The notes beneath the pieces were generated by a model. It saw only the letters and a program-made list of their open reading frames with translations. It was not told the DNA's origin and did not search any database. 64,000 bases of DNA from a virus, in the IMG/VR virus record IMGVR_UViG_3300025832_000005, positions 62,001 through 126,000 of that record; one strand, written 5' to 3'. Position 1 is the stretch's first letter; each line of letters opens with the position of its first letter. Positions 20,738 through 50,145 of the stretch are shown in pieces. Made by a program: the position numbers and the translations under genes.

Positions 20738-21520
20738 TTAAACTAGACTTCTTCCAAATGCTCTGCCAGCAGCAAATCCACCAGTGAACGCTGCAGCACC
20801 AACAGCTGCTCTTTGCGCAATTTTTCTAGCAGTAATTTTTGGCTCTGCGCTAGCAATATCTGGATTAATTAATCCGCCTGCTTTACTAAATTGTTTAAAT
20901 GGTTCATACAGTTCACTACGTATAGCATTGGCTCTATAATATTGAATTATTTTAGTTGCTGCTAATTGTTTTTGTCCTGCTTGTAATCCTTGCCATCCAG
21001 TTGCCATTCGTCTAATAGACTTATAATTAGCTTCTTTAATATCAAGACTGCGTTCAAGACGCATGAATAATCCACTAGCTTGTTTGGGATTTTGCCCAGC
21101 AGCTATGGATCTTAAATATGTTTTTAACTGTTGCTCTGGTATACCAACTCTTGCTGCTTGTGCTTTTTCAGAAGCATCGATACCAGTTTTAGTTGATATT
21201 TTATGAAGTGCGTGATAAAGATCATTGCCGTCTCTACGATAGTTTTTAAAGTTACCACCGCTAGCAAGTGTTCTTTTAGCATAATCTTGCGCCATAGGTT
21301 TAGTACTTGGATTTTGTGACATTATATGCATTGTTAGCAAGTTCATGAACGCAAAGTCCGCAGTGTTTTTCAAATCAACAGTTTCAAGTTGTTGACGAGT
21401 TTTGTACATTTTACTAGCTTCATTGAGATCATTAACAAACCCAAATTTTGGTTCGTTAGCCTCACTCATAGTATGTCCGCCTTCGATTTCTGCCCATTGC
21501 TTTGCTGTATATTGTTCCAT
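20738..21520 (-). CDS. hypothetical late protein with Ala/Gly-rich hydrophobic C-terminus
   Basis: 260 residues, mainly helical and basic, ending in an Ala/Gly-rich segment (AVGAAAFTGGFAAGRAFGRSLV) that could insert in a membrane. A late octamer ends five bases before the ATG, so it is probably read from a leaderless mRNA. No family recognised. It lies just downstream of the ligase-like gene and could be a virion protein ejected with DNA, which is speculation. Confidence 0.65.
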   Translation of the reverse strand: MEQYTAKQWAEIEGGHTMSEANEPKFGFVNDLNEASKMYKTRQQLETVDLKNTADFAFMNLLTMHIMSQNPSTKPMAQDYAKRTLASGGNFKNYRRDGNDLYHALHKISTKTGIDASEKAQAARVGIPEQQLKTYLRSIAAGQNPKQASGLFMRLERSLDIKEANYKSIRRMATGWQGLQAGQKQLAATKIIQYYRANAIRSELYEPFKQFSKAGGLINPDIASAEPKITARKIAQRAAVGAAAFTGGFAAGRAFGRSLV

Positions 21521-21525
21521 AGTAG

Positions 21526-21533
21526 TATTTATA
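21526..21533 (-). promoter_or_regulatory. late promoter octamer TATAAATA
   Basis: Perfect TATAAATA, five bases (CTACT) before the ATG at 21520, overlapping the last codons of the ligase-like gene. Confidence 0.8.
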
Positions 21534-22602
21534 AGTTTGGCGTCCAGCGATGTCTTGGTACAAGTTTAATTTTATCTCTACCTACTACATATCCTTCGCC
21601 ACCACTTTCACCTTTTGTAGTTGCTGTTACATCAGCTGGAGCATTGTCTAGCTGATCAATAATATTATTTTTTACTGTCATAATTTGTACAACTAATCCT
21701 AGTATAGCATTTAATCCATTACTGTCACTAGCCATTAGTTTTGCTTGTTGTCCAGCACTTACTTTACTAGTTTTTAACCAGTCGAAAAAACCACTTTGTA
21801 ATTGCTTTAATTTACCTTGTTTTACCATTTGATTTACATATGTATAAATGATATTACCTTTATTACTAAGACCCTGTTCAGGTGTTAACCAACCGTCAAT
21901 TGCTTGAGCATTAGCATTAGTTGCTTTTATAATGTCTTCTACACTGCTAATATCTACACTAGCTTGATGTGGTACATATGTTTGACCCATAACTACAACT
22001 TCATTAGTATTAATTCTTTTTGTATCTTTAATAGGAGTGCCAGTTTTGTCGCCAAACTCTCCGTATATACTGTGTGCCGCAATACCAATACTACTTGCGC
22101 CAACTCTTTTACCAAGATCACTGTTAGCGTCTATAGTATATAGAACACTATTTGGTTCAAATTGATATGTGTCGTTGTTTGATACGTATGGTTTGCTTGG
22201 TGAGTATAATAAATCACCATATATAAAGCCACGCAGATCGTTTGGTGTATTACGTTGCATGATGTCAAATACATCACCCATGTTATTAGCAAAGTCCTGT
22301 CTCCAGTCTTCGCCTTTACCAGTACTCATAACAAATGATTTTAATTCATCACTGCTAGTAGTTTTATTTTTACCCCAGCCATTTTTACCAGTTAGTACAA
22401 ACGTTCCGTCTGCTTCTCTGCCCCAATAGATAGTAGGATTGCCGTCCCATTTAATGGCTACATCATTTGAATCTTGACCAAGTCGTTGTAGTATACTTGC
22501 CGCTCTAAGAGCACCAGCACTGCCTTCAGCAAATACTAGATCTTCTAAGTGCTGGTATTCACGCCCTACTTTAGCTTCCGTTAAAAACTGGTTTGCTCGC
22601 AT
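21529..22602 (-). CDS. nucleotidyltransferase/ligase-like protein (KxDG motif)
   Basis: 357 residues from the ATG at 22602, which overlaps the preceding stop as TAATG; a TTG extension is rejected. IKWDGNPTIYWGR (Lys51-x-Asp-Gly54) matches motif I of covalent nucleotidyltransferases (DNA/RNA ligases, capping enzymes). RGFIYGDLLY (about 124-133) fits a motif III region, and EGYVVGRDKIKLVPR (336-350) fits motifs IV and V. The family is one of the unassigned families of marine T4-like phages. N-terminus MRANQFLTEAKVG looks like a capsid-targeting peptide with an L-T-E/A cleavage site. Co-transcribed with a Pol-beta-type nucleotidyltransferase. Ligase chemistry is inferred from motifs, not demonstrated. 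Confidence 0.72.
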   Translation of the reverse strand: MRANQFLTEAKVGREYQHLEDLVFAEGSAGALRAASILQRLGQDSNDVAIKWDGNPTIYWGREADGTFVLTGKNGWGKNKTTSSDELKSFVMSTGKGEDWRQDFANNMGDVFDIMQRNTPNDLRGFIYGDLLYSPSKPYVSNNDTYQFEPNSVLYTIDANSDLGKRVGASSIGIAAHSIYGEFGDKTGTPIKDTKRINTNEVVVMGQTYVPHQASVDISSVEDIIKATNANAQAIDGWLTPEQGLSNKGNIIYTYVNQMVKQGKLKQLQSGFFDWLKTSKVSAGQQAKLMASDSNGLNAILGLVVQIMTVKNNIIDQLDNAPADVTATTKGESGGEGYVVGRDKIKLVPRHRWTPNL

Positions 22603-23390
22603 TAGCTTTGTTCTTTCCAATTTGGATCGTTAGCTCTGATATTTGCTAATAGCTCTTCGCCTTCTTTACCCAATGCTGCTACAATAGCTTCCACACTGCC
22701 CATGTCTTGTTTGTGGGCATTAGGGCCTAATAATAATTTAGCAATCTCATCAATGTCACTTGTAATAAATCCATCTGGATCTTTTTTACCGTTTGGTAAA
22801 CGTTTAAACAATCCAACATAGTTACTCCATAACATGCCTTTTCCTTTAGCAATAATACTAAGCATCTGTTGCTTGTTAACACCTTTAAACGGCGATCCTT
22901 TTGGAATATTATGTGTATGGAATTGTGCCGCATTAGCAGCATTTGGTACTACCATAATGTCTACTTGGTGTGTGTTATCACCAATTGGTGTTTCTACGTG
23001 TACACTAGTACCACTTTGTCCTGTGTTAAACCCTGCTAAGTCAAATACTTGACGTAGCTTTTTACGGATGTCAGCATCTTTAGCGTCTTCCATATTAAAA
23101 TGTTGTTTTAGCTGATCTACATCTACGATCATATCCAAGTCACCACTTACTTTACCAGGTGTTGGAGTTGCTCCACTACCAATTGGTATAGCAGTACTAC
23201 CAGTTTTTGCCAGTACTGAATTAATTGATTTCATAATGCCAGGTATTAGTTTGTGATCAAAGCCCACACTGTCAGGGAATACATTACCGCCTTCTCTAAG
23301 ATGTAAATCTTCTTGTCTTAATCTTTTGATGCGGCTTCCACGACGGATTTTGCGTTTGCTCATTCCGCCTAGTATGTCTTTAATCTTCAC
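22602..23390 (-). CDS. Pol-beta superfamily nucleotidyltransferase
   Basis: 262 residues. Shows the superfamily signature: GS at 71-72, then SGDLDMIVD with Asp84 and Asp86, and the third carboxylate in HQVDIMVV (Asp144). Such enzymes add nucleotides to RNA, DNA, proteins or small molecules. The N-terminal 40 residues are very basic (SKRKIRRGSRIKRLR). Overlaps the preceding small gene by four bases (ATGA) and the ligase-like gene by one base, so the three are tightly coupled. Substrate unknown. Confidence 0.8.
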   Translation of the reverse strand: MKIKDILGGMSKRKIRRGSRIKRLRQEDLHLREGGNVFPDSVGFDHKLIPGIMKSINSVLAKTGSTAIPIGSGATPTPGKVSGDLDMIVDVDQLKQHFNMEDAKDADIRKKLRQVFDLAGFNTGQSGTSVHVETPIGDNTHQVDIMVVPNAANAAQFHTHNIPKGSPFKGVNKQQMLSIIAKGKGMLWSNYVGLFKRLPNGKKDPDGFITSDIDEIAKLLLGPNAHKQDMGSVEAIVAALGKEGEELLANIRANDPNWKEQS

Positions 23391-23623
23391 AGCTTTGATA
23401 CCCCTCTTTTAAACTTCCGAGGATCCTTGGTGCGAATTGAATTAATTAATCTTTTATTCAAATCCGCCGCAGTTTCATTATCAAATGTCTCATTAATTAA
23501 TTCAATTAAGTTAATTGCCGTAGCAATTACTTGTTCAGCATTTGCTTCAACAAGTTGCCGTCTGTCACGCTTTGGTGACATAGAATTAATTTCTTCTAAA
23601 ATAGATCTCGTTTTACGTTTCAT
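23387..23623 (-). CDS. small basic helical protein, first gene of the nucleotidyltransferase cassette
   Basis: 78 residues: MKRKTRSILEEINSMSPKRDRRQLVEANAEQ..., basic ends around a helical centre (VIATAINLIELINETF). Late octamer TATAAATA eight bases before the ATG. Stops inside the start of the nucleotidyltransferase gene. It could be a partner, adaptor or substrate of the two enzymes that follow; I recognise no family. Confidence 0.7.
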   Translation of the reverse strand: MKRKTRSILEEINSMSPKRDRRQLVEANAEQVIATAINLIELINETFDNETAADLNKRLINSIRTKDPRKFKRGVSKL

Positions 23624-23631: not shown

Positions 23632-23639
23632 TATTTATA
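23632..23639 (-). promoter_or_regulatory. late promoter octamer TATAAATA
   Basis: Perfect octamer, eight bases before the ATG at 23623; would start a transcript with about three leader bases for the nucleotidyltransferase cassette. Confidence 0.75.
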
Positions 23640-23645: not shown

Positions 23646-23836
23646 GTTGTTAAAACATTGGTGGATAGTACTTATAGCAACTTTGCATTTCCTGATCGTG
23701 AACTTAGGATCCATAGGCAATAAGAATTAATACAGCTATGGGATGCGGGCAACAATTCAGGCTAATATCTTCGCCCGTTGTTCGTACATCATATTATAGA
23801 TACATATAAGGTCAACGGCATCAATGTTTTAACAAC
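23646..23836. repeat. gene-free region bounded by a 15-bp perfect inverted repeat
   Basis: About 190 bases between gp41 and the nucleotidyltransferase cassette hold no gene. Arms GTTGTTAAAACATTG (23646-23660) and CAATGTTTTAACAAC (23822-23836) are exact inverse copies. Inside are further inverted pairs (CCATAG/CTATGG, CGGGC/GCCCG). It could be a structured RNA, a bidirectional terminator or a replication origin. Confidence 0.7.
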
Positions 23837-25221
23837 TATTCCCTTCGTTTAAGTAAATTTTGTAATCTTGCGGCGTTTTCCACTGCGGTATTATCAGGCT
23901 GTGCTGACTCAGTACCAGCAGGGCTAACAGTTGCTTTATTCTTTAAGCTCTGATAGATGCTTGCTACTTGTCCTTCTTCACCTTGTTCATCTTCATCCAA
24001 GTCTGTAATACGCAGTGTATTCATATCATAGCCCAAGTCTAGTTTAGATCCAACACCACTACTACTACGTGTTTTCATAAACTGTATCTGTACTCTGCCA
24101 CGTTCACGCATTGCTCTTGAGCTAAAGATACCAATTAGGTTGTCTGCTGTATTAATCTTACTAATACCACCAGCAATGTGACTGTGATCAAACTCTACTT
24201 CATCAACAGCACCACGATTCAACTGAGACGCTGTAACAAACAATATGTTAAGCTCAATAGCTAAGTTACGTAGTTCTTCACTTACATACTTGTCTTTAAT
24301 AAACTGATCGCTTGGATTAACTTTAACGCTAACAGGCATCATAAGATCCAAATAGTCCACAAACAATCCATCAATTTTAATGTCGTTTTGTATCTGATAT
24401 TCTTTAATATATGCCTTGATATCATTAATAGTTGCGCCGTTAGGCATTTGTATCATTTGTAGTACGCCTGCTTTTTTGCTTGCCATACGTACTTTAAGTG
24501 CTGTGTCATCAGCATTGCGCATAACATCTTTAGTACTCTGGTTAGTAACCATAGCATCAATACGCATACTACATAGTTCTTCACTAAGTTCTAAACTTAC
24601 ATACACTACGTTCTTGCCAGCTAAACTCCAGTTGAGTGCCATGTTTTGCATAAACAAACTCTTACCACTACCGGATCCGCCAGCAAAGATGTTTAGTTCG
24701 CCTGGATTAAATCCACCATATAGTATCTTGTCAAGGCTTTCCCATCCAGTACTGTTTTGTCCACGATTGTCTTTAATTGCTTGTATACGTCCTGCTGGAT
24801 CGTCCCAGTAGTTAAGCCCAAAGTCTTTTGCTAGTCCAATACCAACAGCATCTTTAATTAGTTGCTCAACACTTCCGTATTCATGTCGTTCTAGTTTATC
24901 AGCACTTTCCAGGATAGCACCCTCAAGTGCCTTGTGTCTACAAAACTTTTCGTATTCATCCATAAACCATTTTTTATGGTCATCAGTAATCTTTGCTCTT
25001 ACATCATCAAATTCAATTCTTACTTTGGCTTTAATTTGTTCATGTGTTGGTAAATCGCCGTAGCCATCTACATGTTCTTGTATAAAGTCCATAACAGGCT
25101 GATACTTACGAACAAAGTATTTGCTGTTTGTAATCGCATTGCAGCGTACAAACAAATCTTTGTCAGCAAGTAAAAACTCTAGATATAACTTTTGTAAATC
25201 TTCTGTGTACTCTTCACTCAT
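23836..25221 (-). CDS. 41: replicative DNA helicase, gp41-like
   Basis: 461 residues of the DnaB-like family. Walker A GGSGSGKS at 181-188, Walker B-type GLFVDYLDLMMP, and later FVTASQLNRGA and HIAGGISKINTADNLIGI helicase motifs. Unwinds DNA 5'-3' on the lagging strand and pairs with the gp61 primase encoded just upstream. No intein or frameshift seen. The C-terminal Gln/Ser/Pro-rich 40 residues are probably disordered. Confidence 0.95.
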   Translation of the reverse strand: MSEEYTEDLQKLYLEFLLADKDLFVRCNAITNSKYFVRKYQPVMDFIQEHVDGYGDLPTHEQIKAKVRIEFDDVRAKITDDHKKWFMDEYEKFCRHKALEGAILESADKLERHEYGSVEQLIKDAVGIGLAKDFGLNYWDDPAGRIQAIKDNRGQNSTGWESLDKILYGGFNPGELNIFAGGSGSGKSLFMQNMALNWSLAGKNVVYVSLELSEELCSMRIDAMVTNQSTKDVMRNADDTALKVRMASKKAGVLQMIQMPNGATINDIKAYIKEYQIQNDIKIDGLFVDYLDLMMPVSVKVNPSDQFIKDKYVSEELRNLAIELNILFVTASQLNRGAVDEVEFDHSHIAGGISKINTADNLIGIFSSRAMRERGRVQIQFMKTRSSSGVGSKLDLGYDMNTLRITDLDEDEQGEEGQVASIYQSLKNKATVSPAGTESAQPDNTAVENAARLQNLLKRRE

Positions 25222-25567
25222 TATTTGTTAGCTTCTTCAATATATATTCCTCTCGAGTGTAGATCATTCGCCAGGCGTCACCCTTGAGCGGCACTTTACC
25301 ATGCATATCCATAGTTATAGCGTATTCCCAGTAATTTGTCAACCAGATAAACTTACCACTGTGATCACTACGGGTTGGCATCCAAGCAAAATGCTTGGTC
25401 CAATAACTGTGTAAATCAGCATATGCGCTAATGTGTTTCATCTTATCTACTTGTCTCCAAAAATTTTCATCTCTTATATTATAATCATCTACAATAGGAT
25501 TTTGCAAGTAATCATCTACAATAGGATTTTGCAAGTAGCTGGATCTTCGTTGTGTTTGTTTCTGCAC
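25214..25567 (-). CDS. conserved phage hypothetical protein between gp61 and gp41
   Basis: 117 residues if started at GTG (25567, GGAG upstream), overlapping the primase 3' end by 56 bases. A core of NFWRQVDKMKHISAYADLHSYWTKHFAWMPTRS is followed by a Trp-rich segment; relatives sit in the same place in marine T4-like phages. The N-terminus contains YLQNPIVDD twice because of a 27-bp tandem duplication. An ATG at MKHISAY is an alternative start. Function unknown, probably replication-associated by position. Confidence 0.65.
   Translation of the reverse strand: MQKQTQRRSSYLQNPIVDDYLQNPIVDDYNIRDENFWRQVDKMKHISAYADLHSYWTKHFAWMPTRSDHSGKFIWLTNYWEYAITMDMHGKVPLKGDAWRMIYTREEYILKKLTNNE
25483..25536. 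repeat. 27-bp perfect tandem duplication
   Basis: Two exact copies of a 27-bp unit (25483-25509, 25510-25536; begins AATCATCTACAATAGG). It overlaps the gp61 stop and the start of the next gene. It adds nine residues to the latter and leaves gp61 unchanged because the stop is inside the first copy read. Confidence 0.95.
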
Positions 25568-26531
25568 TGTCTATAATGCTCCTCACTGTGAATAGTCTAC
25601 CATATTTTACAGCAGCATCTGCCGCATCTTTACAGCTTTCCCATGGAGGAAAACTGACTGACCAACCTCTGCGAATAGCTGTTTTAACTAAGTCCATGCC
25701 TGCGCTATCTGCGTCTGGCACAACTATAACTTCTTTTTTTAGATCGTCAATAATATCACACTGTACATTACTTGGTGTATTGCCACTAGTAGCAATGCCA
25801 TTTACTAACAATGCGTCCATTTGACCTTCAGTAACGATCGTATACTTATGAGTACGCTGTTTGTCTAGATTATAAACAAAGTTCTTGGGCATCTGATGAT
25901 AGTATTTTGGTGTAGCTTTGTCAGGTGTTTGTCCTACCCAACGTGCTGTATATCCTACTGTTTTTCCTTTATAGTTAAACGGCAATATGATACGATTTCT
26001 GAAATGGCTTTCTGGTGTCCACTGCCAACCATTATAGAAACTCATTCCACGCTCTTCAACATACTGTACTGCTTTTATAAAACTTTCCAGTTGTCTTGGA
26101 GTTAGTGTATCAGTATCCCATTTATCAAAGGTAGTTGCGTTTTTTGGCAATTCCATAGGTTGCCATGTAATTTTAGCTTTTTCCTTACGTTCAGTAGTTG
26201 AAATAAACTGTTGTGCTACTTGATCTTTTTCGTTCTCTTTAAGTAGTTCAAAATTAACTCGTTGTATTTGGGCTGGATCAGCGCCAAACGCTACTAGTAA
26301 ATCAGATAACATTGTGTTGATTCGGTTACCAGGGCTCCAACCTGTTTTGTAATTACAGTTAAAACAGTTATATTGAACTTTATCGTCCTGGAACATTATA
26401 CCGCCACGTCCACGAGTATCTCTACTGTGTCCACGAGTATGGCACATTGGACAATTACCACTTGTCCATCCACTTGGGGACTGTTTCCAGCCACCAGGAA
26501 TGCTCTGGCGTACAAAATCTAAAACTATCAT
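25512..26531 (-). CDS. 61: DNA primase, gp61-like
   Basis: 339 residues. N-terminal zinc finger (GNCPMCHTRGHSRD ... YNCFNCNYKTGW), then the TOPRIM core: TIVTEGQMDALLV with the catalytic Glu and EVIVVPDADSAGM with the Asp pair. Makes RNA primers for lagging-strand synthesis with gp41. Ends at 25512 inside the tandem duplication. No nearby promoter is seen; it follows the structural gene at 26541 by nine bases, though the latter is late. Confidence 0.93.
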   Translation of the reverse strand: MIVLDFVRQSIPGGWKQSPSGWTSGNCPMCHTRGHSRDTRGRGGIMFQDDKVQYNCFNCNYKTGWSPGNRINTMLSDLLVAFGADPAQIQRVNFELLKENEKDQVAQQFISTTERKEKAKITWQPMELPKNATTFDKWDTDTLTPRQLESFIKAVQYVEERGMSFYNGWQWTPESHFRNRIILPFNYKGKTVGYTARWVGQTPDKATPKYYHQMPKNFVYNLDKQRTHKYTIVTEGQMDALLVNGIATSGNTPSNVQCDIIDDLKKEVIVVPDADSAGMDLVKTAIRRGWSVSFPPWESCKDAADAAVKYGRLFTVRSIIDSAETNTTKIQLLAKSYCR

Positions 26532-27353: not shown

Positions 27354-27361
27354 TATTTATA
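27354..27361 (-). promoter_or_regulatory. late promoter octamer TATAAATA
   Basis: Perfect octamer on the minus strand, 18 bases before the ATG at 27335, in the short divergent gap shared with the plus-strand gene at 27381. Confidence 0.75.
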
Positions 27362-37648: not shown

Positions 37649-37723
37649 TGGCTGGGTCGATAGGACTCGAACCTATACTCTACGCTACCAAAAAGCGGTG
37701 CATTACCATTATGCTACGACCCA
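37649..37723 (-). tRNA. tRNA-Gln (anticodon TTG)
   Basis: Seven-base acceptor TGGGTCG/CGACCCA, D-arm GCAT...ATGC, anticodon loop TTTTGGT, T-arm ATAGG-TTCGAGT-CCTAT, encoded CCA. Last tRNA of the minus-strand cluster. Confidence 0.92.
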
Positions 37724-37728
37724 TTACT

Positions 37729-37803
37729 TGGCAGTCCCTAGGGGAATTGAACCCCTCTTTCCAGGTTGAAAACCTGGCGTCCTAACCGATAGACGAAGGG
37801 ACC
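37729..37803 (-). tRNA. tRNA-Glu (anticodon TTC)
   Basis: Complete cloverleaf: acceptor GGTCCCT/AGGGACT (first pair G-U), anticodon stem CCAGG with loop TTTTCAA, T-loop TTCAATT, CCA encoded. Confidence 0.95.
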
Positions 37804-37807
37804 ATTA

Positions 37808-37892
37808 TGGTGCGGATGGAGAGACTCGAACTCTCACGCCGTGAAGCACAGGTACCTAAAACCTGCGTGTCTACCGATTCCACCACATCCGC
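37808..37892 (-). tRNA. tRNA-Leu (anticodon TAG)
   Basis: Acceptor GCGGATG/CATCCGC, class II variable arm, anticodon loop TTTAGGT, T-loop TTCGAGT, encoded CCA. Confidence 0.95.
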
Positions 37893-37895
37893 TTA

Positions 37896-37932
37896 TGGTG
37901 CCTGTTGAGAGACTTGAACTCCCGACCGGCTT
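37896..37932 (-). pseudogene. 3' half of a tRNA (T-arm and acceptor only)
   Basis: A complete T-arm (GGGAG-TTCAAGT-CTCTC) and acceptor strand AACAGGC-A-CCA, but nothing upstream except the neighbouring tRNA-Thr. Remnant of a tRNA cut by insertion or recombination. Confidence 0.8.
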
Positions 37933-37936
37933 ATTA

Positions 37937-38011
37937 TGGTGCTGATGGAGAGAATCGAACTCCCAATCTACTGATTACAAATCAGTTGCCTTACCATTGG
38001 GCCACATCAGC
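37937..38011 (-). tRNA. tRNA-Thr (anticodon TGT)
   Basis: Acceptor GCTGATG/CATCAGC, anticodon stem CTGAT with loop TTGTAA-type (TGT), T-loop TTCGATT, encoded CCA. Its 5' end abuts the stop of the HNH gene with no gap. Confidence 0.95.
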
Positions 38012-38518
38012 TTAGAAACTTTGTCCTTCATAATAGCGTTTCATTCTACTATGTCGTCCGTTTCCTTTATTCTTACCCTTGTATGTTAATGTCTGACTAT
38101 GACAGTTAGGACATAACAAACTTAGGTTATCTTCAGCGTTATTTTCTGAATTGCCATCTTTGTGTTCTAATTCTAACACAATTGGCTTTTGGTTCCACTC
38201 AGTAATTCCGCATTGCCAGCAACCACTTACTTGTTCTGCCAAGTACCGTTTAACTGGTCCTTTGCTTAGTTTACCTGTTTCCTTCCAAACACGAACGTAT
38301 TCGTTATGTTGGAAACTATGTTGGCACTCTAAATTACAAAATTTATTCTTAGTCGAGTGTGACCATTTATTTTCATTTCCACAGTGCAGACATATAAATG
38401 TTTTTATAGGTCCTGCTCTGCTAACGCTATATCTACTTCCTTCTTTATGTGCTACCATATGTGCGTTCAACGCTCTTTGGGTAGCATATTCTTTATTACA
38501 TTCACCGCACTTAAACAT
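38012..38518 (-). CDS. HNH homing-type endonuclease with zinc finger
   Basis: 168 residues. N-terminal C2H2 finger (MFKCGECNKEYATQRALNAHMVAH), a second Cys pair (CLHCGN...CNLEC) and a third (CWQCG), then the HNH core LELEHKDGNSENNAEDNLSLLCPNCHSQ. Typical of free-standing homing endonucleases. Sits between a 5' tRNA fragment and an intact tRNA-Thr whose first base follows its stop directly. Upstream are AAGGAG and a late-type octamer CATAAATA (38544-38551), plus a palindrome AGCAAAATTTGCT (38558-38570). Confidence 0.88.
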   Translation of the reverse strand: MFKCGECNKEYATQRALNAHMVAHKEGSRYSVSRAGPIKTFICLHCGNENKWSHSTKNKFCNLECQHSFQHNEYVRVWKETGKLSKGPVKRYLAEQVSGCWQCGITEWNQKPIVLELEHKDGNSENNAEDNLSLLCPNCHSQTLTYKGKNKGNGRHSRMKRYYEGQSF

Positions 38519-38585
38519 CAGTGGCTCCTTATTTGCTCAAAAGTATTTATGCTTTTAAGCAAAATTTGCTCTATTAGTTGAGCAA

Positions 38586-38608
38586 GCTACCAACTGAGCT
38601 ATTGCGGC
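38586..38608 (-). pseudogene. 5' tRNA fragment
   Basis: GCCGCAA-TA-GCTCAGTTGGTAG is the acceptor and D-arm of a tRNA; no matching 3' half follows. It precedes the HNH gene and is next to the palindrome AGCAAAATTTGCT. Confidence 0.7.
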
Positions 38609-38609
38609 G

Positions 38610-38684
38610 TTATCTTTTTACTCTACAAATTGGACAAAAGTCGTTGTGATCCAATTCAAATTTACATTCAGGACATTTATTCAT
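38610..38684 (-). CDS. possible 24-residue zinc-ribbon microprotein
   Basis: ATG-started frame with two CPxC motifs: MNKCPECKFELDHNDFCPICR and a KR end. AGGA lies eleven bases upstream. It fits between tRNA-Ser and the 5' tRNA fragment. Four spaced Cys argue for selection, but length is short and it could be a chance or decayed end of an HNH gene. Confidence 0.35.
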   Translation of the reverse strand: MNKCPECKFELDHNDFCPICRVKR

Positions 38685-38705
38685 ATTAATACTTATCCTG
38701 TATCT

Positions 38706-38797
38706 TGGCGGGCAGCCAGGGATTCGAACCCTGGGAACGCTATTAACGTTCGTCCGCTTAGTAGGCGGGTGCTTTAAACCACTCAGCCAACTGCCCG
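38706..38797 (-). tRNA. tRNA-Ser (anticodon ACT)
   Basis: Class II tRNA: acceptor CGGGCAG/CTGCCCG, D-arm TGGCTGAGTGG, anticodon loop CTACTAA, long variable arm, T-loop TTCGAAT, encoded CCA. Anticodon ACT (A34) is unusual for bacteria, where GCT is normal. The 5' 15 bases overlap the end of an HNH gene. Confidence 0.88.
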
Positions 38798-39187
38798 TAA
38801 ACCGTCCCAACCTCCAAGTATTGCATGTTCTTCTGCATGACAGTTTGCACATAACAATGCGCACTTATCTACTTCTTCTAAAAAGACCTGTAAGTTTTTA
38901 GATCTTCTAAACGCTTTTGGGTCCTTCTTAGTCGGGTCTTTGTGATGAAACTGTAATGCTCCTGTGTAGTTGTTATATCCACACTTTTCGCAACAGCCAC
39001 CTTTATGTTTAATCGCTTGCAACCTAACATCTTTTTGTGTTTGGTGCGTTAATTTAATGTGACAACTTTTACACCGGATCTTCTGACCACCATAAAAGTT
39101 GTCTGGATTAGTTTCGTTACAAGTCTTACACAAGTATGGCTTTACCACACCTTTCTTACCTGAACTGCCTATGCCTTCTAAGTTCAT
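38783..39187 (-). CDS. HNH homing-type endonuclease
   Basis: 134 residues. Four Cys of an N-terminal ribbon (YLCKTCNE...IRCKSCH), a second pair (CCEKCGYNNY), then the HNH core LQFHHKDPTKK ... LLCANCHAEEH. The last 15 bases are inside tRNA-Ser. Upstream is a 5' tRNA-Ser fragment, a perfect palindrome AAAGTAAATTTACTTT (39219-39234), a CTAAATA octamer (39206-39212) and GGAG. Same arrangement as the HNH gene at 38012. Confidence 0.85.
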   Translation of the reverse strand: MNLEGIGSSGKKGVVKPYLCKTCNETNPDNFYGGQKIRCKSCHIKLTHQTQKDVRLQAIKHKGGCCEKCGYNNYTGALQFHHKDPTKKDPKAFRRSKNLQVFLEEVDKCALLCANCHAEEHAILGGWDGLRAVG

Positions 39188-39228
39188 CTTACTCTCCTAT
39201 ACTGTTATTTAGCATATTAAAGTAAATT

Positions 39229-39256
39229 TACTTTAAGCCACTCAGCCACCTGTCCG
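39229..39256 (-). pseudogene. 5' fragment of a tRNA-Ser
   Basis: CGGACAG-GTGGCTGAGTGGCTTAAAG is close to the 5' end of the intact tRNA-Ser (CGGGCAG-TTGGCTGAGTGG-TTTAAAG) but stops at a 16-bp palindrome. It marks the other border of the HNH cassette. Confidence 0.8.
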
Positions 39257-39261
39257 TATTC

Positions 39262-39337
39262 TGGCTCCCTCTGCTGGGCTCGAACCAGCGACAAATTGAT
39301 TAACAGTCAATTGCTCTACCAACTGAGCTAAGAGGGA
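39262..39337 (-). tRNA. tRNA-Asn (anticodon GTT)
   Basis: Acceptor TCCCTCT/AGAGGGA, D-arm GCTC...GAGC, anticodon loop CTGTTAA, T-arm GCTGG-TTCGAGC-CCAGC, encoded CCA. Confidence 0.95.
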
Positions 39338-39340
39338 ATA

Positions 39341-39448
39341 AAGACTGCTTATTGCTAACACACCTATCAACACTTCCTCCCTCACCTAGCCTTATTGACA
39401 TTGCTAGTTACGTTTGGTTGCTACTTGTGTGTAGCAATAAGCAGTCTT
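39341..39448. repeat. 22-bp inverted repeat forming a 108-nt hairpin element
   Basis: Arms AAGACTGCTTATTGCTAACAC and GTGTGTAGCAATAAGCAGTC-TT pair except for one extra A, around a loop of about 63 bases. It lies between tRNA-Asn and a degenerate tRNA. No reading frame inside. It may be a small structured RNA or a recombination/processing signal. Confidence 0.85.
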
Positions 39449-39457
39449 CCTTATTCT

Positions 39458-39526
39458 TGGTGCCCTCTCCCGGACTCGAACCGGGACGCTGTGAAGACTG
39501 AGGATCCCCATTCTCCATCACTAGGG
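39458..39526 (-). pseudogene. degenerate chimeric tRNA
   Basis: The 3' half (CCCGG-TTCGAGT-CCGGG, AGAGGGC-A-CCA) is intact and its acceptor pairs perfectly with the 5' fragment at 39760-39784. The 5' half instead resembles the tRNA at 39991-40075 (CCTAGTGATGG, AATGGGGA, CCTCAG). The anticodon arm cannot form. Reads as a recombinant between two tRNA genes. Confidence 0.7.
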
Positions 39527-39534
39527 TTATTCTT

Positions 39535-39628
39535 TGGTGCGGGCGGTGGGACTTGAACCCACAACGTGATCATTAATCTGTGAAGGATTTTAAGTCCTTT
39601 GCGTTTCAACCAATTTCGCCACGCCCGC
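39535..39628 (-). tRNA. tRNA-Leu (anticodon TAA)
   Basis: Acceptor GCGGGCG/CGCCCGC, class II variable arm, anticodon stem AGGAC-type with loop TTAAAA carrying TAA, T-loop TTCAAGT, encoded CCA. Confidence 0.94.
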
Positions 39629-39752
39629 TTATTAACTTTTTAACTCTGGAATAGTTGCCCCCTTTTGGAGCAAGTCCAACTTCTAACAACGTTTGTCTTA
39701 TATTACTATGATTATCGTATGCTGTCAATAACTCATTGTCAGAAACTTTAAC
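39606..39752 (-). pseudogene. remnant of a homing endonuclease DNA-binding region
   Basis: A 48-codon open frame without an ATG encodes VKVSDNELLTAYDNHSNIRQ followed by TLLEVGLAPKGGNYSRVKKLI. The GLAPKGGNY..VK.LI signature is the helical DNA-recognition segment common in HNH homing endonucleases. The frame runs into tRNA-Leu and stops there; no HNH core is left. Upstream is a 5' tRNA fragment. Confidence 0.65.
39700..39728 (-). promoter_or_regulatory. sigma70-type promoter within the tRNA cluster
   Basis: TTGACA (39723-39728), 17 bp, TAATAT (39700-39705) on the minus strand, upstream of tRNA-Leu(TAA). It overlaps the homing-endonuclease remnant. Confidence 0.65.
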
Positions 39753-39759
39753 TTAAACA

Positions 39760-39784
39760 ATGTCTACCATTCCACCAAGAGGGC
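39760..39784 (-). pseudogene. 5' tRNA fragment (Leu-like)
   Basis: GCCCTCT-TGGTGGAATGGTAGAC is an acceptor and D-arm of class II Leu type. Its acceptor is a perfect partner for AGAGGGC at 39461-39467, about 290 bases downstream, with a homing-endonuclease remnant and an intact tRNA-Leu between. Confidence 0.8.
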
Positions 39785-39813
39785 ACTTTATTCTAATTAC
39801 TGTGTATGTGTGG

Positions 39814-39957
39814 GAGGTTCTCAACGCTTTCGCTCCGCCTATCCACACTAACGACAAACACTTGCCGGCATACTTGCATCGAGCCTTTTGTTGTGATTGC
39901 GACATCACTTCTCATCATATGGGACTTGCTAACCCATACTAGCTGAGGAGCAACCTC
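39814..39957 (-). ncRNA. GC-richer structured non-coding element
   Basis: The 200 bases between two tRNA-like genes are much richer in G+C than the surroundings and hold no convincing gene. Complementary ends GAGGTTGCTC (39948-39957) and GAG-AACCTC (39814-39822) close a region with internal hairpins (GCTA...TAGC, GCGAAAGC). A GTACTCC-TTA-GGAGTAC hairpin lies just outside. Probably an RNA; family not recognised. Confidence 0.45.
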
Positions 39958-39990
39958 AACACGTCTCTTGGTACTCCTAAGGAGTACTAT

Positions 39991-40075
39991 TGGTCCTAGC
40001 GGTTGGAATCGAACCAACTCGGTCATTACAACAAAGCGTTATGAGCGCTGAGGCTCCCCATTTGCCATCACTAGG
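39991..40075 (-). tRNA. tRNA with anticodon CAT and long variable arm
   Basis: Acceptor CCTAGTG/CGCTAGG, D-stem GGC/GCC, anticodon loop CTCATAA, a variable region of about 14 bases (GTT...GAC can pair), T-arm GTTGG-TTCGATT-CCAAC, CCA encoded. CAT suggests Met or Ile (if C34 is lysidine-modified), but class II structure is not expected for either. Confidence 0.7.
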
Positions 40076-40082
40076 TGTATTC

Positions 40083-40159
40083 TGGCGGTCCCTGCAGGAT
40101 TCGAACCTGCAACCTACTGCTTAGAAGGCAGTTGATCTATCCAGTTGATCTAAGGAACC
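40083..40159 (-). tRNA. tRNA-Arg (anticodon TCT)
   Basis: Acceptor GGTTCCT/AGGGACC (one U-G), anticodon stem ACTGC with loop CTTCTAA, T-loop TTCGAAT, encoded CCA. First tRNA of the cluster on the minus strand; its 5' 23 bases overlap the end of the preceding gene. Confidence 0.93.
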
Positions 40160-40406
40160 TTAATTCTATTGTTTTTAGTTTTAACATGATAGCATTAACT
40201 GAGTCTGGTGTCAAGCCTGGAATAACATCATCATTGTCATTTATGCCAGGTAGTTGTACAAACATATTGTCGTCAAAAACTGCCGCTTCATACTTTGCTT
40301 TTCCAGGCAAAAGTACTACACTAAGCTGATACTTTCCAAACTGCTGTTTAGCTTGAAAGTGACCAGGACCAACTTCATTAAACTTGAGTGTATTGAAAAG
40401 TTGCAT
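40137..40406 (-). CDS. hypothetical protein ending inside tRNA-Arg
   Basis: 89 residues from MQLFNTLKFNEVGPGHFQAK; GGAGG lies nine bases before this ATG. Beta-rich first half (YQLSVVLLPGKAKYEAAVFDDNMFVQLPG). The last eight codons (LRFLRSTG and stop) are read from the 5' part of tRNA-Arg, so the end may have been remodelled when the tRNA arrived. Follows the LPD29-like gene directly. Function unknown. Confidence 0.65.
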   Translation of the reverse strand: MQLFNTLKFNEVGPGHFQAKQQFGKYQLSVVLLPGKAKYEAAVFDDNMFVQLPGINDNDDVIPGLTPDSVNAIMLKLKTIELRFLRSTG

Positions 40407-40410
40407 CAGT

Positions 40411-40818
40411 TTACACCTCCAATGTATATGGTTTATTCCACTTACCAACATTAACGTCAGTGTAGTGTGAACGACTAAAGTAATCAGTCATTGCGTCATC
40501 GTTGTTAAAGTACTTTGGACCTTTCATAGCATCTACAAGCTCTTCTAAAAAGTCACTAGCGGCACCGTATGTTTCAGGATAGTAAGGGTTTACTTGAATG
40601 TATCCATCATTTTCATAGTATGGTGTACCACGGCGTTCTGCGATCTCCTGGTTCTTTTTATTGGCTTCACCAATAAAGTCAATTGGACCACTCTTAATGT
40701 TTACACAAATTGTTGAGTGATTATTAACACTAATGCTGGCTTTCATACGATACTTTTTTAGTACTGCTTTGATGCCTGGTGCTAATTCTTTTTTCATTGC
40801 TTGTGATACATACGCCAT
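40411..40818 (-). CDS. conserved hypothetical protein (LPD29-like)
   Basis: 135 residues. The layout MAYVSQAMKKELAPGIKAVLKKYRMKASISVNNHSTICVNIKSGPIDF ... PEHY-like region ... SHYTDVNVGKWNKPYTLE matches a widespread phage/plasmid domain with an N-terminal helix and an S-x-x-V beta core, related to large-polyvalent-protein domains. Function not established. Preceded by AGGAG and the TCTAGAACTGCTAGA promoter. Confidence 0.7.
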   Translation of the reverse strand: MAYVSQAMKKELAPGIKAVLKKYRMKASISVNNHSTICVNIKSGPIDFIGEANKKNQEIAERRGTPYYENDGYIQVNPYYPETYGAASDFLEELVDAMKGPKYFNNDDAMTDYFSRSHYTDVNVGKWNKPYTLEV

Positions 40819-40851
40819 TTGCTAACTCCTGTTTGCTTAACTTATACATAA

Positions 40852-40880
40852 TGTCTAGCAGTTCTAGACCAAGATGTCAA
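40852..40880 (-). promoter_or_regulatory. promoter with TCTAGAACTGCTAGA element
   Basis: TTGACA (40875-40880), 17 bp, extended -10 TGC-TAGACA. Contains GTCTAGAACTGCTAGAC, an inverted repeat shared with the promoter at 35694-35722. The message leader also shares TATAAGTTAA. Confidence 0.7.
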
Positions 40881-40888
40881 TAGCTAAT

Positions 40889-41263
40889 TTAACTTTTTTT
40901 ATATTTTTTTAACATTTTTTCTTGTTCAGCATATGCTTCAATTTCCCACGGACGTTCAAAGTAAGGAATATCACTAGGCTCAAACATAGGAAACTCACCA
41001 CGTACATCTTGTTTAATGTGTACAAACTCATGGAAGATAGCAGTAATAAGGTCTTCAGTTTTCAGACCTTTGCGAACACGGATCTCATACTCACGATCAT
41101 CATCGCCTTCTAAACAGTCTGCTTCGGCGGCCAATCCTGGCGCAATCTCTACATCAACTGCTAGTTTACGGTGTCGTGGTAACCAGTAATCTTTAGCAAA
41201 CCATAATGCTTCTGTTACTAGTTGTCGTTCTTTTTTAGTACCGCCGATTACACTATAAAGCAT
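40889..41263 (-). CDS. zinc metallopeptidase-like protein (HExxH)
   Basis: 124 residues. ITAIFHEFVHIKQDVRG holds the HExxH zinc motif (HEFVH) and WEIEAYAEQEKML provides a candidate third ligand Glu further on, as in gluzincin-type small peptidases. N-terminal helix (KKERQLVTEALWFAKDYW) and acidic EGDDDREYEIRV. Could be a protease or an inactive relative. Early promoter with palindromic spacer upstream. Confidence 0.75.
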   Translation of the reverse strand: MLYSVIGGTKKERQLVTEALWFAKDYWLPRHRKLAVDVEIAPGLAAEADCLEGDDDREYEIRVRKGLKTEDLITAIFHEFVHIKQDVRGEFPMFEPSDIPYFERPWEIEAYAEQEKMLKKYKKS

Positions 41264-41290
41264 TGTGATCCTCTTTTAACTTATACATAT

Positions 41291-41319
41291 ACTATAGCAC
41301 CAATACGTCTTGGTGTCAA
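41291..41319 (-). promoter_or_regulatory. sigma70-type promoter with palindromic spacer
   Basis: TTGACA (41314-41319), 17 bp, TATAGT (41291-41296). Contains CACCAA-GACGTA-TTGGTG, the same element as at 6065-6093 with one base changed. Confidence 0.85.
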
Positions 41320-41328
41320 GCCGGTTTA

Positions 41329-41487
41329 TTAAAAAAATGCCATTAAAATTAGAATTAATATTAGCCAGCCAACCCAGTTAAATCCGCCACCAATTAAGCC
41401 CTTACTTTTAGCACAATCGTAGCAGTAACGATACTTCTTTGGTGTCTTTTTTGTACAAAAAAATGCGTCACATGTTTTTTTACTCAT
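41329..41487 (-). CDS. 52-residue Cys-rich membrane microprotein
   Basis: MSKKTCDAFFCTKKTPKKYR, YCYDCAKSKG, then a hydrophobic helix (GWLILILILMAFF) at the C-terminus. Four Cys in a C-x4-C...C-x2-C pattern could bind zinc. It starts as ATGA over the uvsY stop, so it is coupled to uvsX-uvsY expression. No family recognised. Confidence 0.7.
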   Translation of the reverse strand: MSKKTCDAFFCTKKTPKKYRYCYDCAKSKGLIGGGFNWVGWLILILILMAFF

Positions 41488-41939
41488 AATGAAATATCTT
41501 CTAATCCTGCTGATCTTAATTTTACAATGTTATTAATCTGAAATCCTTTAGTATCCAGTGCTTTGATAAGCCCCATATACTTGTTACGGATCAAGGCAAA
41601 CTCATTACAAATGTGTTGCTGGTCGATAACATCAGGTTCACCTTCAGCATACTTGTCAGCGTCACGGCTACTTAGAGCACGATTATAATGCTCTAAAAAC
41701 TTTTTATATTTTTGTGTTTTTATTTTACGAAGTTCAATATTCAGATATTCCAGAATTGCTTCTATCTCCTGTAATTGATTAAAACGATATTCAATTATAC
41801 CAGGCATGTCTCGTGAATGTCTTTCGACACTGCCTTTAAGGCCACACTCTTTACGTGCTTCGTCTAATTGTTTTTCGTAATAATCAATTGCAGGGATAAT
41901 GTTACTGATATCTTTTCGTATATCGTTAAACCAGCTCAT
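41484..41939 (-). CDS. uvsY: recombination mediator UvsY-like protein
   Basis: 151 residues, helical. The C-terminal region GLIKALDTKGFQINNIVKLRSAG parallels T4 UvsY (ALDAIKSRGFAIKHIQDMRAF), and the middle KFLEHYNRALSSRDADKYAEGE fits its DYYSGRGD-type stretch. UvsY loads UvsX onto gp32-coated ssDNA. It follows the small gene at 41940-42188 immediately and lies downstream of uvsX, as in marine T4-like phages. Confidence 0.82.
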   Translation of the reverse strand: MSWFNDIRKDISNIIPAIDYYEKQLDEARKECGLKGSVERHSRDMPGIIEYRFNQLQEIEAILEYLNIELRKIKTQKYKKFLEHYNRALSSRDADKYAEGEPDVIDQQHICNEFALIRNKYMGLIKALDTKGFQINNIVKLRSAGLEDISL

Positions 41940-42188
41940 TTACCATTCTTCATCATCTTCGTTAAACTCGTCCAAATCTACATATTCAGTATATTTGTCT
42001 CGGATAACTTTGTCAATAGTTCCGTCAAAACCAACTAGTTCATCAGATACTTCTTCAATATCAATTGAATCTTCTAGGGTCATTAAGAACTTTTGACAAG
42101 CGTCATATTTGTCCTTTGCTGTAATGTATGGCTTTACTGCCATCCAAAGATTCACGAACTGTTCAATTTCGTCTTCACTCAGTTTCAT
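41940..42188 (-). CDS. small acidic protein between uvsX and uvsY
   Basis: 82 residues, acidic C-terminus (YVDLDEFNEDDEEW), helical. KPYITAKDKYDACQKFLMTLEDS fits a compact helical bundle. Overlaps the uvsX 3' end by 14 bases. Conserved position between the two recombination genes suggests an accessory role, but no function is known. Confidence 0.72.
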   Translation of the reverse strand: MKLSEDEIEQFVNLWMAVKPYITAKDKYDACQKFLMTLEDSIDIEEVSDELVGFDGTIDKVIRDKYTEYVDLDEFNEDDEEW

Positions 42189-43293
42189 ATGTATCAGTTT
42201 CCTCAGATAATGTGTTCTCGTTATTTAGTTCATCAGCATCTTCAGTAACGTCATCTACTTTTTGGTCGTCCCATTCGCTCATAATAAGGTCTAATGCGCC
42301 ATCTTTATTAGCATTCCAAGGCTTACGGAACATTTTAATTACTTCACCAGTTACGTGACTAGTGTATTCCAAACTGTTACCGCTCTTCTTTAGAATATCT
42401 TTGGCTTCAAAGAACTCTACAAGTCCACTGTATGGACTCATACCTGTTTCATATGGAATCTCCACTTGTACACTTTCAAACGGTTTAGCATAACGTGTTT
42501 TCATTACCTTACACGCCGCTCTAATACCATGTACTTGTGAAGTCTTGTTGCCGTCTGCGTCTACTTTTAGTTTAAGTTTACGCATAGCAACCACAATACT
42601 ACTTGCGTAGATAAAGCCTTGCCCACCACTAATCTTATCATCTGGATCAAACATATCCTGTGATGCGTATGTGTGGTTAGTTGCCATTAGTCCTACGTTG
42701 TATTCGCCCAACATGTTAACAGTATTACGAACCAGTGATGTTAGTGCTTTAGGCTTACGGCCCAAGTCACCCTTCATATCACCTGCTTCAAACTGTTTAA
42801 CATCAGTTGGTGTCAACATCATACCTAATGAGTCAATCACAAACAATACTTTAGGACGTTCGTCCTTTTCCTTGTCTGCCCATTCCTTTTTGTAGTCTGT
42901 CATGAAATCACTCATAACTTTGGCTACATCGTCAATCATTGCTAAGTTAAGTTTTAGCAACTTATCTGGACTTGTATCTACATCTAATGCGTGTAGCCAA
43001 GTCTCATCTAGTGCGTTTTCAGTATCAATTAGTACAACAAAAATGTTTTGATCCTGTGCTTGTTTAACAATATTACCAGCCGCAATATACGATTTACCTG
43101 CGCCTGATTCACCAGCTAGTACTGATACTTTGCCAAGTGGAATACCCTTTTCAAAGTCTCCACTAATTAATTTGTTTAGTGTATAATTACCTGTTGAAAT
43201 CCATGTATCTGGATCATTAAACCCAACACTTAGTCCGGGCACCGCTTTAGTAATACTCTTGCGGAATTTACTTACATCAAATGGTCTTGCCAT
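42175..43293 (-). CDS. uvsX: UvsX recombinase (RecA-like)
   Basis: 372 residues. Walker A GESGAGKS at 61-68, Walker B VLFVIDSLGMM, and the GDMKGDLGRKPKAL and NHTYASQDMFDP stretches of UvsX. Forms filaments on ssDNA for strand exchange. Follows gp32 by about 64 bases, separated by a GGGCG/CGCCC hairpin that could be an attenuator. No intein seen. The acidic, Thr/Glu-rich C-terminus is typical. Confidence 0.96.
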   Translation of the reverse strand: MARPFDVSKFRKSITKAVPGLSVGFNDPDTWISTGNYTLNKLISGDFEKGIPLGKVSVLAGESGAGKSYIAAGNIVKQAQDQNIFVVLIDTENALDETWLHALDVDTSPDKLLKLNLAMIDDVAKVMSDFMTDYKKEWADKEKDERPKVLFVIDSLGMMLTPTDVKQFEAGDMKGDLGRKPKALTSLVRNTVNMLGEYNVGLMATNHTYASQDMFDPDDKISGGQGFIYASSIVVAMRKLKLKVDADGNKTSQVHGIRAACKVMKTRYAKPFESVQVEIPYETGMSPYSGLVEFFEAKDILKKSGNSLEYTSHVTGEVIKMFRKPWNANKDGALDLIMSEWDDQKVDDVTEDADELNNENTLSEETDTYETE

Positions 43294-43318
43294 TATTATC
43301 TCCTAGAAAGAAAGTGTC

Positions 43319-43338
43319 GGGCGACATATTTGCCGCCC
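43319..43338 (-). terminator. weak hairpin between gp32 and uvsX
   Basis: GGGCG and CGCCC (43319-43323, 43334-43338) can pair across ten bases, followed on the minus strand by GACACTTTCTTTC. A partial terminator or processing hairpin would let gp32 be made in excess over UvsX. Confidence 0.45.
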
Positions 43339-43357
43339 TTAACTATATGTTATGGAT

Positions 43358-49644: not shown

Positions 49645-50145
49645 TTATACCTTATATTCTTTATTTAATTCTGATTTAGGTAAGTTCTTAACAAAGTTTG
49701 AAACAAATTCATTTCCAAAGTTGTCTTTATGTTCTACTTTTTCAGCTTCGCTATAATCAGCATCTGCTAATACACTTTTGCTTTCATCATCAGTAGCGTT
49801 CTCTAAATCCTCTTCTTCGTCGATAAACTCACCTTCATTATATACTCTAATTGCTCCAATACTAATACCAGTTGACGCCGCAACTTCTTCTTGCATTACA
49901 TTTGGAGTACATGGTAGGTGTGTTACGATTTCCAAAGTAGACACTGCGCTCGGGCCAATGTCACCAAACCCGGCTGGGCTTCTTTGAATAATACTAGTCT
50001 TAGGTGCGCTTACGCTCTCTACATTGTATCTTGCTAAGTGCTTCTCTAATTTATCTAGTTGATCATCTGACATTTCAGCCACAGTACGTAGTCTGAAGTT
50101 GTATGTTTTCTCAGATTCTGCCAAATATTGCTTTAAACTTTTCAT
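49645..50145 (-). CDS. late protein with capsid-targeting-like N-terminus
   Basis: 166 residues. N-terminus MKSLKQYLAESEKTYNF has an L-A-E/S site like T4 prohead-protease sites. A ferredoxin-like alpha/beta domain follows (FRLRTVAEMSDDQLDKLEKHLARY ... STLEIVTHLPCTPNVMQEEVAASTG), and then an acidic tail. AGGA precedes the ATG; late GATAAATA octamer upstream. A family of conserved but unassigned marine T4-like proteins. Confidence 0.72.
   Translation of the reverse strand: MKSLKQYLAESEKTYNFRLRTVAEMSDDQLDKLEKHLARYNVESVSAPKTSIIQRSPAGFGDIGPSAVSTLEIVTHLPCTPNVMQEEVAASTGISIGAIRVYNEGEFIDEEEDLENATDDESKSVLADADYSEAEKVEHKDNFGNEFVSNFVKNLPKSELNKEYKV

What the first reader, a model, noticed from the sequence alone, without database searches (positions are those of the whole stretch)
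21529..23623. Candidate new system: small basic protein + Pol-beta nucleotidyltransferase + KxDG ligase-like protein
Three overlapping genes under one late promoter encode a basic protein, a nucleotidyltransferase with GS...DLD...VDI motifs, and a protein with KWDG (motif I), GDLLY, EGYVV and IKLV motifs of covalent nucleotidyltransferases. Such a pair could modify and seal nucleic-acid ends, or transfer nucleotides to a protein. The ligase-like protein also has a capsid-targeting-like N-terminus, raising the idea of a packaged repair or takeover enzyme set.
Basis: partly seen in the sequence, partly recalled or inferred. Interest (0 to 1): 0.88.

Follow-up and report, generated by a model that had tools for sequence, protein, structure and literature searches.

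The report
Phage polymerase-ligase repair gene pair
A marine T4-like virus of bacteria carries, side by side and apparently addressed for packing into the virus head, a small gap-filling DNA-polymerase-like enzyme and a ligase-like enzyme of a family so far called only 'unknown function', which suggests that many ocean viruses bring along their own kit for mending broken nucleic-acid ends.

Summary
On the minus strand three overlapping genes follow a TATAAATA late-type promoter: a 78-aa basic protein, a 262-aa nucleotidyltransferase and a 357-aa KWDG protein. The 357-aa protein belongs to an existing Pfam family of unknown function (DUF6267). The 262-aa protein matches no family in Pfam, PHROGs or NCBIfam.

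The 262-aa protein is best read as a family-X (Pol lambda/beta-like) polymerase core: its AF2 model has Pol lambda/beta as all 50 top PDB matches (E down to 3e-8), and its profile matches bacterial PolX but not RlaP. DUF6267 looks like a divergent covalent nucleotidyltransferase: Lys51, Glu336 and Lys346 are invariant in 89 sequences, RNA/DNA ligases recur among its sub-significant structural neighbours, and jumbo-phage KxDG ligase-like proteins bridge it to RNA ligases.

The two genes are adjacent in most relatives and fused in one contig. Where the polymerase is missing, a HIGH-type nucleotidyltransferase often takes its place. Both proteins carry disordered leaders ending in [LI]xE, like T4 capsid-targeting presequences.

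Most likely this is a virion-borne nucleic-acid end-repair pair. DNA versus RNA as substrate, and packaging itself, are not shown. New variant of a known kind.

The parts
23632..23639 (-). TATAAATA, T4-type late promoter octamer before the cassette
   Evidence: same octamer before other genes with 5' ends at 27361, 21533, 18008, 45887, 52473
23387..23623 (-). 78-aa basic protein (phrog_11854, 'virion structural protein'); N-terminus MKRKTRSILEEIN conserved
   Evidence: relatives in jumbo phages sit at the same place after the DnaB helicase
22602..23390 (-). 262-aa family-X polymerase-like nucleotidyltransferase (palm + thumb, no 8-kDa/HhH domain)
   Evidence: AF2 pLDDT 88.8; Foldseek PDB top 50 all Pol lambda/beta, E to 2.8e-8; hhalign vs bacterial PolX P 1.4e-5
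23292..23390 (-). leader of the polymerase-like protein (aa 1-33), mostly predicted disordered, ending LRE before GGN
   Evidence: 60 of 65 leaders end [LIV]xE-GG; leaderless relatives start MSGN or MGGN
23133..23141 (-). catalytic DxD (D84, D86) of the polymerase-like protein
   Evidence: invariant in 70 sequences; coordinates
22959..22961 (-). third catalytic Asp (D144)
   Evidence: invariant in 70 sequences
21529..22602 (-). 357-aa DUF6267 protein, ligase-like covalent nucleotidyltransferase (ATG start inside the listed 363-aa ORF)
   Evidence: Pfam PF19782 E 9e-28; AF2 pLDDT 91.8
22573..22602 (-). leader MRANQFLTEA of DUF6267, prohead-protease-like site LTE|A
   Evidence: pLDDT below 50 for aa 1-11; 78 of 88 leaders with [LI]xE versus 22 in shuffles
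22441..22452 (-). motif I KWDG, Lys51 = expected AMP/GMP acceptor
   Evidence: invariant in 89 sequences
22213..22215 (-). Asp130, motif-III-like acidic residue (GDLLY)
   Evidence: at least 90% conserved
21592..21597 (-). motif IV EG (E336, G337)
   Evidence: invariant in 89 sequences
21565..21567 (-). motif V Lys346 (IKLVPR)
   Evidence: invariant in 89 sequences
20738..21520 (-). 260-aa protein downstream, own TATAAATA at 21526-21533; a homologue follows the ligase-like and polymerase-like genes in jumbo phage Phosso: possible fourth member
   Evidence: BLASTP E 1e-16

Best explanation
The cassette encodes a two-enzyme kit for repairing broken nucleic-acid ends. The 262-aa protein is a reduced family-X polymerase that adds one or a few nucleotides at gaps or ends. 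DUF6267 is a covalent nucleotidyltransferase that takes an NMP on Lys51 and seals the 5'-phosphate end. Both are made late and carry cleavable leaders that direct them, probably with the small basic protein, into the prohead, so they would enter the next host with the genome and repair it (gaps, nicks, UV or nuclease damage) at once. Shown here: families, conservation of catalytic residues, adjacency, one fusion, partner swapping, leaders. Inferred: catalysis, sealing, packaging, and a preference for DNA.
For: Polymerase side: all 50 top PDB matches of the model are Pol lambda/beta over about 200 residues, E 2.8e-8 to 4e-7, prob 1.00; profile versus bacterial PolX prob 80, P 1.4e-5, against 0.1 for RlaP and at most 0.4 for four other sets; catalytic Asp invariant in 70. 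Ligase side: K51/E336/K346 invariant in 89; after its own family the best named high-probability viral-structure match is an 'RNA ligase' of phage Atu_ph07 (E 2.9e-3, prob 0.90), with other RNA/DNA ligases recurring further down, and ligases also recur among the sub-significant PDB matches, Trl1 first; jumbo-phage KxDG proteins match DUF6267 (P 4e-4 to 8e-4) and RNA ligases (P 7e-4); an ordered motif string is in 171/198 DUF6267 and 3/3 jumbo proteins, 0/872 other ORFs, 0/60,000 shuffles. Joint action: polymerase gene directly upstream in 54 of 92 non-redundant loci, most often with a 1-nt overlap, and one single-ORF fusion. Packaging: [LI]xE leaders; leader moved straight onto DUF6267 in L133 and L198 and found on unrelated proteins; in S-SZBM1 the neighbouring HIGH-type enzyme with leader MRFRQFIIEA was found in virions (PMC9146016). 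No other recognisable ATP-DNA, NAD-DNA or PF09414 RNA ligase in the 133-kb record.
Against: No significant PDB match for the DUF6267 model (best E 0.1, TM-scores about 0.2) and no direct profile match to DNA or RNA ligases. Ligase-like matches are more often RNA than DNA ligases. In S-SZBM1, DUF6267 (leaderless there) was not among the virion proteins. Many DUF6267 genes lack the polymerase, and the swap to a HIGH-type enzyme is not explained by gap filling. The only fusion is one metagenomic contig and could be a frameshift artefact. The motif string was chosen after seeing the jumbo proteins.
Confidence: 0.5

Rival explanations
1. RNA repair pair: the polymerase-like protein restores nucleotides on cleaved tRNA or mRNA and DUF6267 seals the RNA, countering host anticodon nucleases, as predicted for RlaP with phage RNA ligases.
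For: Most ligase-like structural neighbours are RNA ligases; the jumbo bridge proteins resemble PF09414 RNA_ligase (Atu_ph07 E 0.002, below cut-off); RlaP-Rnl pairs are described in jumbo phages (PMC7824862); the window carries 10 tRNA genes.
Against: The Pol-beta protein is not RlaP by profile or Pfam and resembles gap-filling DNA polymerases with a thumb; no kinase/phosphatase end-healing gene was recognised next to it; late promoter and head leader are unusual for tRNA repair.
Confidence: 0.27
2. The pair belongs to phage DNA replication or genome maturation in the infected cell (missing replicative ligase, end processing before packaging); the N-terminal sequences only keep it near the prohead or are incidental.
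For: The locus lies directly after primase and DnaB helicase in the window, in cyanophages and in jumbo phages; no other ligase is recognisable in the record; the cyanophage S-SZBM1 DUF6267 lacks the leader and was not found in virions.
Against: Late promoter; leaders with [LI]xE far above chance; T4-like phages can use host ligase (established knowledge).
Confidence: 0.13
3. DUF6267 and its partner move nucleotides onto a protein or small molecule (AMPylation, capping, cofactor making) to take over the host, rather than joining nucleic-acid ends.
For: The partner can be a HIGH-type NMNAT/cytidylyltransferase-like enzyme instead of the polymerase, never both nearby (0/51 versus 11/25), and published work places that enzyme in virions (PMC9602691, PMC10665884).
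Against: Retention of a motif-V lysine and an EG motif IV fits ligase/capping chemistry, and the usual partner resembles a template-using polymerase rather than a protein NMPylase.
Confidence: 0.1

Closest known systems
DUF6267 (Pfam PF19782) / phrog_455
   Same: The 357-aa protein is a member over its full length (E 9e-28).
   Different: The family has no assigned function; here it is given a ligase-like reading and a polymerase partner.
RlaP (PF10127) with phage RNA ligases
   Same: A Pol-beta-superfamily enzyme working beside a covalent ligase (PMC7824862).
   Different: Not RlaP by profile (prob 0.1) or Pfam; late and head-addressed rather than in an RNA repair operon.
PgVPolX, polymerase X-ligase fusion of Phaeocystis globosa virus (PMC5537341)
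   Same: Pol-X core joined to a ligase domain; the L205 fusion has the same order.
   Different: PgVPolX has lyase activity and an NAD+-dependent ligase domain; DUF6267 is a different, more divergent ligase-like family with an inserted helical region.
Family-X DNA polymerases (Pol lambda/beta, bacterial PolX)
   Same: Palm and thumb, GDxD...D catalytic triad, KGM..S thumb region.
   Different: No 8-kDa/HhH or PHP domain, low sequence identity (13-20% in the structural matches).
T4 internal head proteins with capsid-targeting sequence
   Same: Short N-terminal leader with an [LI]xE cleavage-like site on proteins otherwise unrelated (PMC9958956).
   Different: Packaging not shown for these two proteins; basic leader of about 33 aa on the polymerase-like one.

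Membership tests
Family X DNA polymerase | Pol-beta palm with DxD...D carboxylates | tested here: met
   D84, D86, D144 invariant in 70; structural match E 2.8e-8
Family X DNA polymerase | C-terminal thumb subdomain | tested here: met
   alignments of about 200 of 262 residues to Pol lambda/beta; profile alignment runs into the thumb start; the Pfam thumb model itself gives no match
Family X DNA polymerase | 8-kDa/HhH domain or PHP domain | tested here: not met
   protein is 262 aa with a disordered N-terminus; a truncated relative at most
Family X DNA polymerase | template-directed gap filling | not testable with these tools
   needs an assay
RlaP (PF10127) | match to the RlaP profile | tested here: not met
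   hhalign prob 0.1; PF10127 is not among the 25 families shown for 70 members
Covalent nucleotidyltransferase/ligase superfamily | motif I KxDG with invariant Lys | tested here: met
Covalent nucleotidyltransferase/ligase superfamily | acidic motif III, EG motif IV, Lys motif V in order | tested here: met
   D130, E336-G337, K346
Covalent nucleotidyltransferase/ligase superfamily | nucleotidyltransferase fold | tested here: inconclusive
   no PDB match below E 0.1, but Trl1, REL1, LigD and LIG1 recur in the list; ligases recur among the non-family viral matches
Covalent nucleotidyltransferase/ligase superfamily | profile match to PF01068 or PF09414 sets | tested here: not met
   direct prob 0.9 and 0.2; only through jumbo-phage intermediates
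DUF6267 (PF19782) | score over the curated cut-off | tested here: met
   98.1 bits versus 27
T4-type capsid-targeted internal protein | N-terminal leader with [LI]xE prohead protease site | tested here: met
T4-type capsid-targeted internal protein | presence and processing in the virion | not testable with these tools
   only a neighbour enzyme is documented (PMC9146016); leaderless DUF6267 of S-SZBM1 not detected

The most novel reading that the evidence does not exclude
DUF6267 is the constant part of a head-packaged nucleic-acid end-processing system that is widespread in T4-like marine phages and their jumbo relatives. Its second enzyme is exchanged between a Pol-X-like polymerase and a HIGH-type (NMNAT-like) nucleotidyltransferase. 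The set is injected with the genome and acts before any phage gene is expressed.
Probability: 0.3. Interest if true: 0.82.

Novelty: new variant of a known kind. Interest (0 to 1): 0.62.

Why it matters
DUF6267 occurs in at least 468 phage records, most of them T4-like cyanophages, without any function. A ligase-like reading with a polymerase partner makes it directly testable by a simple adenylylation assay. If the enzymes are packaged, marine phages would carry repair of their own genome into the cell, an entry-stage function known mainly from large eukaryotic viruses. The exchange of a polymerase for an NMNAT-like enzyme would also offer a role for the NMNAT-like enzymes repeatedly found in cyanophage virions.

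Tried and rejected
Sequence search of the PDB with both profiles: nothing meaningful; the weak ribosomal eS8 and OAS2 matches lie outside the catalytic motifs or are sub-significant. CCA-adding, MNT/HEPN and AbiEii readings of the nucleotidyltransferase: only sub-cut-off Pfam matches (AbiEii best E 0.0034, DNA_pol_B_palm 0.054), while the structural match points to Pol X. RlaP: rejected by profile. Direct profile link of DUF6267 to DNA or RNA ligases: not found; removing the helical insert did not help. A conserved-block scan with the polymerase alignment failed for want of conserved stretches. The PD-(D/E)XK look of the gene upstream of DUF6267 in some phages: a motif in four of 17, no Pfam support, left as a lead. 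The literature searches found no paper naming DUF6267 or describing this pair.

Full report
WHAT IS THERE. The window is bases 62001-126000 of a 133-kb record of a T4-like marine phage. On the minus strand, downstream of a primase (25512-26531) and a DnaB-type helicase (23836-25221), lie three overlapping genes: 78 aa (23387-23623), 262 aa (22602-23390) and DUF6267 (ATG at 22602, 357 aa, to 21529). A TATAAATA octamer precedes the first. Overlaps of 4 nt and 1 nt suggest translational coupling.

HOW FAR IT SPREADS. DUF6267 (PF19782, E 9e-28) was found in 72 phage records with the window protein as query and in 468 with a cyanophage member, plus hundreds of metagenomic viral contigs. The 262-aa protein has no match in Pfam, PHROGs or NCBIfam but 66 viral loci by direct search, and relatives in jumbo phages Phosso, Atu_ph07 and Lak. 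The 78-aa protein has relatives in 82 phage records, many of them jumbo phages, some annotated as virion structural protein.

THE POLYMERASE-LIKE PROTEIN. With 70 sequences AF2 gave pLDDT 88.8, with the first 33 residues mostly disordered. Foldseek against the PDB lists Pol lambda or Pol beta in all 50 rows shown, prob 1.00, E from 2.8e-8, TM about 0.5 over about 200 residues. Independently, hhalign of its profile against ten bacterial PolX proteins gave prob 80 and P 1.4e-5, aligning GS..GDLD, QVDI and the KGM.wS thumb region; RlaP, ligases, helicase and an unrelated phage family gave at most 0.4. I therefore read it as a reduced family-X polymerase, not as a CCA or MNT enzyme.

THE LIGASE-LIKE PROTEIN. 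With 89 sequences K51, W52, D53, G54, E336, G337, K346 and V348 are invariant, and GD (129-130) and R350 are over 90%. AF2 gave pLDDT 91.8. PDB Foldseek gave nothing significant, but the first row is the adenylyltransferase domain of a tRNA ligase (E 0.1) and REL1, LigD and LIG1 recur. In the viral library the family itself comes first; the best named match outside it with high probability is the 324-aa 'RNA ligase' of Agrobacterium phage Atu_ph07 (E 2.9e-3, prob 0.90), followed by several RNA and DNA ligases at weaker values. That 324-aa length equals the gene lying directly before the polymerase-like gene in Atu_ph07; I take them to be the same, unproven. Three jumbo-phage KxDG proteins at the equivalent place (Phosso, Atu_ph07, Cassandra) connect DUF6267 (P 4e-4 to 8e-4) with PF09414 RNA ligases (P 7e-4) and share PNx[IV]xY between motifs III and IV. 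This is good but indirect evidence for the covalent nucleotidyltransferase superfamily.

DO THEY WORK TOGETHER? In 92 non-redundant DUF6267 loci the polymerase-like gene is directly upstream in 54, nearby in 6 and fused in 1. A HIGH-type (cytidylyltransferase/NMNAT-like) gene follows DUF6267 in 11 of 25 uncut loci without the polymerase and in 0 of 51 with it (Fisher 8e-7, not corrected for kinship). On a DUF6267 tree the partner type needs at least 8 changes, and HIGH-type loci arise within the polymerase clade for L066/L072 and for L148. So DUF6267 often keeps one nucleotidyltransferase partner, but which one is exchangeable. In cyanophages the gene just upstream is variable and in some phages resembles PD-(D/E)XK nucleases (a lead only).

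HEAD ADDRESS. DUF6267 leaders contain [LI]xE in 78 of 88 against 22 in shuffles; polymerase leaders end in [LIV]xE-GG in 60 of 65, and leaderless relatives begin MSGN or MGGN, at the supposed mature end. The basic leader MKIKDILGG... is attached straight to DUF6267 in L133 and L198 where the polymerase is gone, and similar leaders stand on unrelated proteins of these phages. [quoted passage not shown] In cyanophage S-SZBM1 the HIGH-type enzyme next to DUF6267, with leader MRFRQFIIEA, is in the virion, whereas DUF6267 there has no leader and was not detected (PMC9146016). The leader reading is therefore well supported; packaging of the window's two proteins is inferred.

MECHANISM. I favour a virion-borne end-repair pair: polymerase fills or extends, ligase seals (confidence 0.5). 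RNA repair of the RlaP-Rnl type is the main rival (0.27). A role in replication or maturation (0.13) and nucleotide transfer to proteins or small molecules (0.1) remain open.

NOVELTY. Pol-beta/ligase pairs are known (RlaP with phage RNA ligases, PMC7824862; the PgVPolX fusion, PMC5537341). What is new is the families involved, the partner exchange and the head address: a new variant of a known kind.

Noticed in passing
L205:2961-4883: Single 641-aa ORF joining the polymerase-like protein and DUF6267; only one such contig, with an internal LAEA leader-like junction, so a frameshift artefact is possible.
   Followed up: partly
L133:2227-3540 and L198:5728-7092: The basic leader of the polymerase gene is fused directly to DUF6267 and the polymerase body is absent: a natural leader swap.
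   Followed up: partly
L072:7082-8053, L139:6170-7225, L136:6634-8586: HIGH-type nucleotidyltransferase (TFGRFNPP, SASKMR) after DUF6267, mutually exclusive with the polymerase-like gene; apparently fused to DUF6267 in phage S-PM2 (591-aa entry in the viral structure library).
   Followed up: partly
L136:3923-5008, L137:4079-4996, L138:3442-4980, L212:3554-4909: Gene just upstream of DUF6267 in several phages has a PD-(D/E)XK-like motif (TPKTD...SLK); the gene at this place is highly variable in cyanophages.
   Followed up: partly
L131:8369-9052 and L134:8134-8823: A second, different Pol-beta-type nucleotidyltransferase (GSSAGYNYSEYSDMDLHLVV) a few genes downstream of the first in phages that lack DUF6267 nearby.
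   Followed up: no
window 20738-21520: 260-aa unknown protein conserved after the cassette down to jumbo phage Phosso (BLASTP E 1e-16); may belong to the system.
   Followed up: partly
window 47535-48341 and 49645-50145: N-termini MKTFTEYLKEGEK and MKSLKQYLAESEK look like T4 capsid-targeting or scaffold leaders.
   Followed up: no
window 37649-43506: Ten tRNA genes, nine in one minus-strand cluster.
   Followed up: no
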